Below, in pieces: positions 35,558 to 39,019 of a stretch of DNA of 63,409 nt; position 1 is the stretch's first letter, and each line of letters opens with the position of its first letter. The notes below the pieces were generated by a model, which saw only the letters and a program-made list of their open reading frames with translations, was not told the origin of the DNA and did not search any database. The DNA is taken from positions 53,091 through 116,499 of the forward strand of contig JAJZYZ010000003.1 in NCBI GenBank assembly GCA_021797815.1. Direction: 5' to 3'. Origin of the DNA: Bacillota bacterium. Its GTDB lineage: Bacteria > Bacillota > Sulfobacillia > Sulfobacillales > JAIMBI01. The translations under genes and the position numbers were made by a program.

Positions 35558-36013
35558 TCCCGCGGGAATAAGGACGCCGGGCGTGGCCGGTGACCGGCGG
35601 ACGCCCACCGGCGTTCCGACCCTCGTTTCGCACAGCTGTCCAGCGTTGGTGCGACCCCGGTCGCACCATGGTCCGACGTAACCGAGGGATCGCCGGCGAG
35701 GCGCCCGGCCACCATCGACGGGCTTCGGCCGCGGCCGGGTGCCTTGCTCGCGGCCCCGGTTCTAGACTCCTTAGGGGGAAGGAAAGAGACCCGCGTCGTG
35801 GGTGTTGTCACAATCGAGGCGGCTCGACAGATTAAACTTGAGACGGCGGGTTGGCCGCGAGGCGGTAGCGATTCTCCATCTGGCACGGTCCCCGATGATC
35901 GAGATCTCGGGATTCGGCTCCAAACAGGCCTTGGTCGTGGCGGCGACCGCGCGCCGGCCGTTTCGGATACGCTGCGGCCGTCGGCGTGGCCGCGGGAAAG
36001 GCAGGGGCAGCGT
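35558..36013. other. Intergenic region with a perfect palindrome
   Basis: 456 bp without a confident gene; a frame in phase with the DUF488 gene stays open from 35744 but is not protein-like. It contains TGGTGCGACC (35647-35656) / GGTCGCACCA (35659-35668), a perfect 10 bp inverted repeat with a 2 bp centre, 90 bp after the HNH gene. It could be a terminator-like hairpin or an operator; there is no T tract. Confidence 0.5.
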
Positions 36014-36397
36014 TTGCCGTTCGCACTAAAAGGGGCGCGGCTCTGGTCGCCGCCAGACGGATACTATCGGGTCCTCGTCGACCGGCTGTGGCCCCGCGGG
36101 ATTCGGCGCGTGGGGGCTCCCTTTGACGAGTGGATCAAGGAATCTGCCCCAAGCACCGAACTCCGTCTGTGGTACGGGCATGATGCGGCTCGCCATCAGG
36201 AGTTTGTCGCCCGCTACCGGGCCGAGCTTAGCGCCAGACAGGATGAGCCGCCCATGCAGCATCTCCTGGAGCTTGTGCGCTCTCGGCCGGTGGTGCTGCT
36301 GACCACCACGCGAGCCCTGGAAATCAGTCACGTTCCGGTTCTGGCAAGCTTCCTGGAAGACGCGGCGCGGCGAGAAACGGACGCACCGCCGCCGTGA
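36014..36397 (+). CDS. DUF488 family protein (YeaO-like)
   Basis: A 127-residue protein with the family signature VLVDRLWPRGIRRVGAPFDEWIKESAPSTELRLWYGHD, then FVARYRAEL and a C-terminal VVLLTTTRALEISHVPVLASFL. Biochemical function is unknown; homologues are linked to stress. The TTG at 36014 has GGGG six bases upstream; an upstream in-frame start at 35744 is possible but adds non-protein-like sequence. It lies 96 bp upstream of the AhpD-like selenoprotein gene on the same strand. Confidence 0.85.
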   Translation: MPFALKGARLWSPPDGYYRVLVDRLWPRGIRRVGAPFDEWIKESAPSTELRLWYGHDAARHQEFVARYRAELSARQDEPPMQHLLELVRSRPVVLLTTTRALEISHVPVLASFLEDAARRETDAPPP

Positions 36398-36493
36398 GCG
36401 GCGTTTCCCGCCCGCTCGGCTGAAGGGAGTTCGGGAGGAACGCCACTGAACCGGCAAGCGACTGAACCGAACTAAACGAGGAGGAGCATTCTC

Positions 36494-36934
36494 ATGGCCC
36501 CACGGATCGACTGGCCGAGGGTATCTCCGGCGGCTCTCACGGCGATGTCGGCCATACAGCGGCACGTCAACACGAGCGGCCTCGAACCGTCGCTCATCCA
36601 GCTTGTGGATGTCCGGGCGTCGCAGATTAATGGATGCGCGTACTGACTGGAGCTCCACACACGACTGGCCCGGGAGGCCGGTGAACAGGAAGAACGCCTA
36701 TATGGCCTGTCGGCCTGGGAAGAGGCCCCGTTCTATTCCGAACGGGAACGGGCTGCTCTCAAGTGGACAGAGGCCATCACCCTGGTCCACGACGGGCATG
36801 TGCCCGATACCGTGTACGAATGTGTCCGCCAGCACTTTACCGAAGAGGACTTGGTCCATCTCACGATGACCATCATCGTTATCAACGCCTGGAATCGCCT
36901 CGCCATCGGGTTTCGAACGCCGATTGAGCGCTAG
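36494..36934 (+). CDS. AhpD-like selenoprotein with Cys-x-x-Sec (in-frame TGA at 36644)
   Basis: Reading from ATG 36494 to TAG 36934 gives 146 residues, interrupted only by TGA at codon 51. Around it the protein reads RASQINGCAY-U-LELH: C48-x-x-U51-x3-H55. AhpD/carboxymuconolactone-decarboxylase-fold peroxidases have C-x-x-C-x3-H here, so TGA sits exactly on the second redox cysteine. The remainder is intact and family-like (YGLSAWEEAPFYSERERAALKWTEAIT ... TIIVINAWNRLAIGF). A hairpin after the TGA fits a bacterial SECIS element. The ribosome site GAGGAGGAG is strong. Expected role: thiol/selenol-dependent peroxide or organic hydroperoxide reduction. Translation needs SelA, SelB, SelC and SelD encoded elsewhere. 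A nonsense mutation is the alternative but would be a striking coincidence. Neighbours: DUF488 before, folE after. Confidence 0.85.
36644..36682 (+). promoter_or_regulatory. Bacterial SECIS-like hairpin
   Basis: Immediately 3' of the in-frame TGA (36644-36646). Stem ACTGGCC (36664-36670) pairs with GGCCGGT (36676-36682), 7 bp including one T-G wobble, loop CGGGA (36671-36675). The loop starts 24 nt after the TGA and has G in its second position, as expected for bSECIS elements (loop about 16-37 nt downstream). Confidence 0.75.
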
Positions 36935-37080: not shown

Positions 37081-37109
37081 TGACGGATCGCGAAAGGAGC
37101 CCGGTAATA

Positions 37110-37754
37110 ATGCGCACGGCGGTAGAGCCCCTGCGTCTTGGTAATGAGCCGGCGGACAGGGCCAGGGTCAACGATGGGCGTCACCGCCAGGGCCCCATTG
37201 ATGTTGAGTTGATTGCGCAGGCTGTCCAAATGATGCTGCGCGGAATCGGCGAAGATCCGGATCGTGATGGACTGAGAGACACGCCGGCCCGGGTGGCCCG
37301 CATGTATGAGGAATTGTTTTCCGGCTTACACGCCGACCCGGCCGCGGTCCTCGATACGACCTTCGAGGAGTCGTACGACGGCGTCGTGCTGGTACGGGAC
37401 ATTACTTTTTACTCCATCTGCGAACACCATCTCCTGCCCTTCTTCGGCAAGGCCGACGTCGCGTACGTGCCCAACGGCCGCGAGGTCACAGGCCTGTCCA
37501 AACTGGCGCGGCTCGTGGAGGGGTATGCACGCCGCCCCCAGGTTCAAGAGCGCCTGACCGACTTGATTGCCGATGCCGTCGATGCCAGGCTCCAGGCGGT
37601 CGGGACGCTGGTCGTGGTCGAGGCGGAACACCTGTGCATGGTGATGCGGGGCGTCCACAAGCCGGGATCCCGCACCACGACTATGGCGGCTCGCGGACGG
37701 TTGGCCAAGAGTGGCGAAGAGCGCCTCGAGGTGCTGCGGCTTATGGGCCGCTGA
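37110..37754 (+). CDS. folE: GTP cyclohydrolase I
   Basis: A 214-residue FolE converting GTP to 7,8-dihydroneopterin triphosphate, the first step to tetrahydrofolate and pterins. Zinc ligands are visible in [14 protein letters not shown] (Cys, His) and [17 protein letters not shown] (second Cys). [23 protein letters not shown] and TTTMAARG are conserved blocks. The ATG at 37110 has AAAGGAG ten bases upstream; the ATG at 37080 lies inside the operator/promoter and is unlikely. No other folate genes are adjacent. The TrmB-type regulator gene starts 13 bp downstream. Confidence 0.95.
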
Positions 37755-38572: not shown

Positions 38573-39019
38573 CTATGGCACCGGATTAACGGTGACCGGT
38601 CCCACCACGTACTCGAGATAGTCGCGGACGGTCCTGCCGATGAAGCAGAGATCGCGGCTCTCTCGGGCCGCAGCGTCGTACGCCGGTTGTCGGGCCGGAT
38701 CCCCGCCGAAAATCACTGGAGACACCGTGACACGACGGTATCGCGCATCCCTCGGGTATCCCTCGACCACACCCGTGGTGTCGATCCGAAGCCTTTCTGC
38801 GGGAAGTCCCTGCCGTTCGAGGACACGAAAGAGGGTTCCGCTGTAACACGAGGCCACGGCCGCCAGCAGGAGTTCTTCGGGACTCGTGCCGACGCCCTTG
38901 CCGCCCATGCTGGAGGGCGCGCTGTAACGGACGCGGTCGCCTCCTGTCTCGAGAACCCCCTCTCCTCCGCGGCCGCTTCCCGCCCACTCCGCCCGGATCG
39001 AAAATGATAAGTCCGCCAT
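38573..39019 (-). CDS. OsmC/Ohr family hydroperoxide-stress protein
   Basis: A 148-residue peroxiredoxin-like protein. The two reactive cysteines expected of OsmC/Ohr are in AVASCYSGT and SRDLCFIGRTV, with the substrate-pocket motif GTSPEELLLAA. Such proteins reduce organic hydroperoxides. The ATG at 39019 follows AAAGGAG with eight-base spacing. It converges with the TrmB gene. A role in thiol-peroxide defence alongside the AhpD-like selenoprotein is a reasonable inference. Confidence 0.9.
   Translation of the reverse strand: MADLSFSIRAEWAGSGRGGEGVLETGGDRVRYSAPSSMGGKGVGTSPEELLLAAVASCYSGTLFRVLERQGLPAERLRIDTTGVVEGYPRDARYRRVTVSPVIFGGDPARQPAYDAAARESRDLCFIGRTVRDYLEYVVGPVTVNPVP

What the first reader, a model, noticed from the sequence alone, without database searches (positions are those of the whole stretch)
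36494..36934. AhpD-like selenoprotein with Cys-x-x-Sec encoded by an in-frame TGA
The gene is intact from ATG to TAG except for TGA at codon 51, which sits on the resolving/peroxidatic cysteine of the C-x-x-C-x3-H motif (GCAY-U-LELH). A plain gene caller would discard or truncate it. AhpD-like selenoproteins are known from metagenomic selenoproteome work, so the family is precedented, but this implies a full Sec pathway in this organism.
Basis: partly seen in the sequence, partly recalled or inferred. Interest (0 to 1): 0.9.

Follow-up and report, generated by a model that had tools for sequence, protein, structure and literature searches.

The report
AhpD-like selenoprotein with Cys-x-x-Sec active site
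This gene makes a small antioxidant-type enzyme in which one active-site cysteine is replaced by selenocysteine, read from a UGA codon that normally means stop; it is genuine and well supported, but selenoproteins of this kind are already known.

Summary
Window 36494-36934(+) is one frame from ATG to TAG with a single in-frame TGA (36644-36646, codon 51), exactly on the second cysteine of the CxxC-x3-H active site of a PA0269/Atu0492-type AhpD-like protein. It is not an error or pseudogene: this gene and three intact relatives in one Bacillota family (two copies in sister genome G001, one in G004) all keep TGA there. Synonymous sites are near saturation while amino-acid change is slow on both sides of the TGA, so the downstream part is translated. 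A SECIS-like hairpin 24 nt after the UGA is shared by all four and by 0 of 17 Cys homologues. SelB and a TGA-containing SelD are in the genome. selA and tRNA-Sec are missing from this draft, but their sister-genome neighbours (hemB, cysK) run off contig ends here, so their absence looks like assembly gaps. AhpD-like CxxU selenoproteins have been known since 2005: a new member of a known kind. One extra: all four Sec proteins have Gln at the Glu36 position of the PA0269 proton relay, seen in none of 38 Cys homologues. No protein or activity was measured.

The parts
36494..36934 (+). AhpD-like selenoprotein gene, 146 aa, ATG to TAG
   Evidence: translation; family and solved-structure relatives; alignment; model of the read-through product, pLDDT 95, TM about 0.95 to 2gmy/2ijc
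36644..36646 (+). in-frame TGA, Sec51, at the second cysteine (Cys51 of PA0269) of CxxC-x3-H
   Evidence: same codon in G001 (two copies) and G004; Cys in 38 of 38 more distant homologues collected by a motif that requires it
36635..36637 (+). codon 48 (TGC), the partner cysteine of Cys-x-x-Sec
   Evidence: invariant
36664..36682 (+). SECIS-like hairpin: 7-bp stem ACUGGCC/GGCCGGU with loop CGGGA, loop beginning 24 nt after the UGA
   Evidence: same hairpin place in all four Sec genes, 0 of 17 Cys homologues; joint synonymous-codon resampling 0.001
36480..36488 (+). Shine-Dalgarno-like GAGGAGGAG before the ATG (read by eye; coordinates approximate)
   Evidence: sequence
35744..36397 (+). upstream neighbour with DUF488 domain (true start uncertain); also upstream in G001
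37104..37754 (+). downstream neighbour, GTP cyclohydrolase I (FolE; start codon uncertain); also downstream in G001

Best explanation
The gene encodes a Cys-x-x-Sec AhpD-like protein of the short PA0269/Atu0492 type. Shown from sequence: the UGA is kept under selection at the catalytic position, the downstream part is translated, and a hairpin suitable for SelB follows the UGA. Inferred: SelB carrying Sec-tRNA-Sec(UCA) reads the UGA with the help of that hairpin. Sec51, which takes the place of Cys51 of PA0269 and Cys133 of M. tuberculosis AhpD, reacts with a peroxide or other oxidised substrate. Cys48 then resolves it through a selenenylsulfide, and a cellular thiol donor or partner protein reduces that bond. 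The physiological substrate and reductant are unknown. The confidence given is for the selenoprotein reading; the peroxidase/adaptor role is less sure (about 0.6).
For: Frame and family. Conserved TGA in four intact genes of two genera. Selection: dN 0.08-0.23 downstream of the TGA against dS of 1.2 or more, sometimes saturated, while the Cys48 codon switches TGC/TGT. Hairpin. SelB with winged-helix SECIS-binding domain in the genome. SelD with its own in-frame TGA in the genome: and one TGA in all 38 above-cut-off SelD of the 42 genomes searched. selA above cut-off in 36 of 42 and tRNA-Sec above cut-off in 31 of 42 genomes, both including the sister genome. Missing selA and selC explained by contig ends: C126 begins inside hemB, C1 (39,888 bases) ends 4 bases after the matched start of cysK, and in the sister genome selC itself lies on a 127-nt contig overlap. 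Sec proteins form one clade, 97/96. Catalytic residues Cys48, Tyr50, Cys51, His55 from PMC3141380.
Against: selA and tRNA-Sec were not found in this assembly, so their presence is inferred from relatives and contig ends. The hairpin's folding energy alone is not unusual for such GC-rich sequence, it has no compensatory changes, and its loop here is CGGGA without the GU seen in the relatives. No Rfam match. No proteomic or selenium data.
Confidence: 0.95

Rival explanations
1. The gene is a pseudogene or carries a sequencing error at a TGC/TGT codon, and the TGA simply stops translation.
For: A decayed relative with TAA at this codon, other stops and a frameshift exists in G003, so loss of this gene does happen. 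Only a draft assembly was available.
Against: Four intact copies in three separate assemblies have the same TGA; the frame downstream is under strong purifying selection; no other stop or frameshift in the window gene.
Confidence: 0.02
2. UGA is read as tryptophan or by general suppression rather than as selenocysteine.
For: Read-through of UGA by near-cognate tRNA is known in bacteria (general knowledge).
Against: The only tRNA-Trp seen in the genome stretches scanned has anticodon CCA (the whole genome was not scanned with ARAGORN). The TGA sits on a redox cysteine that is Cys, never Trp, in the full-length homologues read, and the Sec machinery is present.
Confidence: 0.01
3. The protein is a Sec-containing AhpD-fold enzyme but not a peroxidase: for example a disulfide/selenenylsulfide reductase, an adaptor for another enzyme, or a dehalogenase-like enzyme. 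(A rival to the role only, not to the selenoprotein reading.)
For: PA0269 itself reduces H2O2 only weakly and AhpD is an adaptor for AhpC (PMC3141380). The relay Glu36 is Gln in all Sec members. The same fold includes the debrominase Bmp8. The neighbours DUF488 and FolE give no peroxidase context.
Against: Cys48, Tyr50 and His55 of the peroxidase site are kept, and the closest solved relatives are the PA0269 type.
Confidence: 0.35

Closest known systems
AhpD-like selenoproteins of marine metagenomes (AhpD-like 1, COG2128; AhpD-like 2, pfam02627; PMC1088965, PMC2398784)
   Same: CMD/AhpD-type protein, CxxU motif, bacterial SECIS-like hairpin after the UGA, Cys homologues widespread
   Different: Those sequences are metagenomic and could not be aligned here; this one is placed in a Bacillota family with its Sec machinery, and forms one local clade among Cys homologues
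PA0269 of Pseudomonas aeruginosa (PDB 2ijc, 2o4d, 7xw1; PMC3141380)
   Same: Nearly the same length and the same numbering; Cys48, Tyr50, position 51 and His55 align; predicted fold TM about 0.95
   Different: Cys51 is Sec and Glu36 is Gln
Atu0492 (PDB 2gmy)
   Same: Best fold match, TM 0.95, 41% identity
   Different: Cys-x-x-Cys; His at position 36 and Phe at position 50 (PMC3141380)
NCBIfam NF053654 YciW-related (seleno)protein and NF041238 AhpD-related CFYUT (seleno)protein
   Same: Weak to moderate profile matches; named as including Sec members
   Different: Scores 68 against cut-off 310 and 28 against cut-off 175, so not members

Membership tests
AhpD-like / CMD family | CMD domain profile above curated cut-off | tested here: met
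   PF02627 71.3 bits against 23; TIGR00778 56.7 against 27.8
AhpD-like / CMD family | CxxC-x3-H active site, with Sec allowed for one Cys | tested here: met
   C48-A-Y-U51-LEL-H55
AhpD-like / CMD family | Glu36 (or His) of the proton relay; usual but not invariant (PMC3141380) | tested here: not met
   Gln36 in all four Sec proteins; E 28, H 4, D 4, R 2 of 38 Cys homologues. Because it also varies among Cys members it does not define the family
AhpD-like / CMD family | peroxidase or adaptor activity | not testable with these tools
   no assay
Bacterial selenoprotein | In-frame TGA conserved in at least two sequences and paired with Cys in homologues | tested here: met
   four intact TGA genes; Cys in the more distant homologues
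Bacterial selenoprotein | SECIS-like hairpin just after the UGA with a G in a small apical loop | tested here: met
   loop CGGGA, 24 nt after UGA; energy not exceptional
Bacterial selenoprotein | SelB and SelD in the genome | tested here: met
   SelB 354 bits against 242; SelD 362 bits against 125 with its own TGA
Bacterial selenoprotein | SelA and tRNA-Sec in the genome | tested here: inconclusive
   not in this draft; present in the sister genome and most of the order; neighbouring genes run off contig ends here
NF053654 / NF041238 selenoprotein families | score above curated cut-off | tested here: not met
GOS/Sargasso AhpD-like 1 or 2 subfamilies | direct alignment or clade with the published sequences | not tested

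The most novel reading that the evidence does not exclude
In this clade the Cys51-to-Sec change went together with loss of the acidic proton-relay residue (Glu36 to Gln). This suggests that the more acidic selenol makes the relay base unnecessary, and that Sec here rewired the mechanism rather than just speeding it up. It rests on one evolutionary event, so it may be coincidence.
Probability: 0.3. Interest if true: 0.45.

Novelty: new member of a known kind. Interest (0 to 1): 0.33.

Why it matters
It is a clear case of a selenoprotein gene that a standard gene caller would truncate or drop. It comes with a natural set of Sec, Cys and decayed versions in one family, a compact test bed for how Sec replaces Cys. 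It also shows how two apparently absent Sec genes in a 97.75% complete draft can be assembly gaps. The Gln at position 36 gives a directly testable point about what Sec does for an active site.

Tried and rejected
Rfam scan of the window: no match, so no named SECIS family. ARAGORN on the tRNA-Sec-like hits of this genome: those in the eight fetched loci are ordinary tRNAs (Ser, Arg, Leu and others), so no selC is hidden there. ARAGORN with introns or low thresholds gave only noise. Hairpin energy against synonymous shuffles: not significant per gene (z near 0), so only the joint conservation of position is used. Scan of the window for other in-frame TGA next to redox motifs: the top of the list by codon-position GC held no other convincing Cys/Sec redox gene; candidates were not checked by homology. 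Sec forms elsewhere in the class or phylum sample: in 154 class genomes only genes of this family have TGA at E <= 1e-25; none in 398 phylum genomes apart from the window gene itself, in a sample that left out the other family members. Formate dehydrogenase of this genome: the full-length match has no in-frame stop, so it is not a Sec form.

Full report
What is there. Window 36494-36934 on the + strand reads ATG to TAG in one frame with a single TGA at codon 51. With TGA read through, the 146-residue product is a carboxymuconolactone decarboxylase/AhpD-core protein (PF02627 6.9e-20; TIGR00778 1.3e-15). By sequence its closest solved relatives are PA0269 of Pseudomonas aeruginosa and Atu0492 (4e-40 and 3.6e-39). 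A model made from 21 aligned sequences has mean pLDDT 95 and matches 2gmy and 2ijc at TM about 0.95; it was built with Cys in place of Sec. The numbering coincides with PA0269, whose proton relay is Glu36, Cys48, Tyr50, Cys51, His55 (PMC3141380). Here these are Gln36, Cys48, Tyr50, Sec51, His55.

Is the TGA meaningful? Homologues were searched in 61 genomes, then in 154 genomes of the class and 398 of the phylum. Besides the window gene, intact genes with TGA at the same codon occur in the sister genome G001 (two copies, 82% and 75% identical) and in G004 of another genus of the family (68%). G001's loci match MAG YP2.bin78, labelled Bacillota bacterium. The full-length homologues outside this group that were read have Cys there; the 38 used for residue counts were collected by a motif that requires Cys at that place. 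Between the four Sec genes synonymous sites are near saturation (pS 0.60-0.81) while dN is 0.08-0.23 downstream of the TGA and 0.16-0.34 upstream; the Cys codon three codons before is TGC in one gene and TGT in three, but the TGA is the same in all. That is strong evidence that the part after the TGA is translated and that the TGA itself is kept. A fifth copy in G003 has TAA at the same codon, a further stop and frameshifts: it is decayed.

The hairpin. A stem of 5 to 7 uninterrupted pairs with a five-base loop beginning 24 nt after the UGA is present in all four Sec genes at identical coordinates. Its loop is CGGGA here and CGUGA or CGUGC in the others. None of 17 Cys homologues has it at that place, and joint resampling of synonymous codons for the four genes gave a shared hairpin in 0.1% of sets; that resampling treats the four genes as independent, which near-saturated synonymous sites only roughly justify. 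The folding energy per gene is not unusual for such GC-rich sequence, and no pair shows a double change. So the hairpin is a good SECIS candidate, not a proven one. The genome's SelD has an in-frame TGA of its own followed by a hairpin with loop CGGGU.

The machinery. SelB (C139, with its winged-helix domain) and SelD (C15, in-frame TGA) are in the genome. selA and tRNA-Sec were not found. In the sister genome G001 selA lies between reading frames that look like etfBA and hemB, and tRNA-Sec (anticodon TCA) lies just after a cysK-like frame (these neighbour names are my reading of the translations). In the window's genome the hemB fragment starts at base 3 of contig C126, and the cysK start ends 4 bases before the end of contig C1. 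In G001 the tRNA-Sec gene itself sits inside a 127-base overlap of two contigs, showing that this locus breaks assemblies. selA is above cut-off in 36 of 42 and tRNA-Sec above cut-off in 31 of 42 genomes of the order searched, and SelD carries one TGA in all 38 above-cut-off matches. I therefore read the two absences as assembly gaps, an inference that closure of the genome would settle. The order may be that of Sulfobacillus (my inference from genome sizes, not shown); published work reports Sec-containing formate dehydrogenase and peroxiredoxin in Sulfobacillus (PMC4378227, PMC7409299).

Origin. In a tree of 30 proteins the four Sec rows form one group with 97/96 support, next to a Cys protein of the same class at weaker support. 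One Cys-to-Sec change within this family, followed by duplication and at least one decay, is the simplest account. Residues fixed in the Sec group and rare in Cys homologues include Gln36, Asp39 and Leu54. Gln36 stands where the relay Glu usually is and is not seen in any of the 38 Cys homologues. Because it goes with the Sec change in a single clade it cannot be separated from chance with these data.

What it does. The most likely role is a thiol/selenol-based peroxidase or an AhpD-like redox adaptor: Sec51 attacks, Cys48 resolves. This is inferred from the family. PA0269 itself is only a weak H2O2 reductase, and the substrates of the family are not known. The neighbours DUF488 and FolE are also found in G001 but do not name a substrate.

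Novelty. AhpD-like CxxU selenoproteins were described from the Sargasso Sea in 2005 and the GOS data in 2008 (PMC1088965, PMC2398784) and are listed in a current review (PMC13188914). This is a new member of a known kind, in a lineage not named in the passages I read.

Noticed in passing
L045:1501-1791 (G048, another family of the class): A different AhpD-like frame with TGA in a C-S-Y-U motif and no His four residues on; best NCBIfam match NF053654 below cut-off. A single instance, possibly another selenoprotein.
   Followed up: partly
L099:9934-10027 and L100:30-123 (G001): The tRNA-Sec gene lies in a 127-base overlap of two contigs, so the selC locus appears to break metagenome assemblies, perhaps because it is variable or a site of insertion.
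   Followed up: partly
L044:1501-1881 (G003): Decayed copy of the same gene, TAA at the Sec codon, with a further stop and frameshifts.
   Followed up: yes
window 38573-39019 (-): OsmC-like protein gene without an in-frame TGA, also present some 5 kb from the selenoprotein gene in G001; OsmC-like selenoproteins are known elsewhere.
   Followed up: partly
L079 (G001, second Sec copy): The sister genome's second Sec copy lies at another locus, near a hemerythrin-like and an NAD(P)H/FAD oxidoreductase-like reading frame (my reading of the translations, not searched).
   Followed up: no
L154 (G000:C63:10096-12102): Formate dehydrogenase alpha of this genome reads without an in-frame stop, unlike the Sec form reported for Sulfobacillus.
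   Followed up: partly
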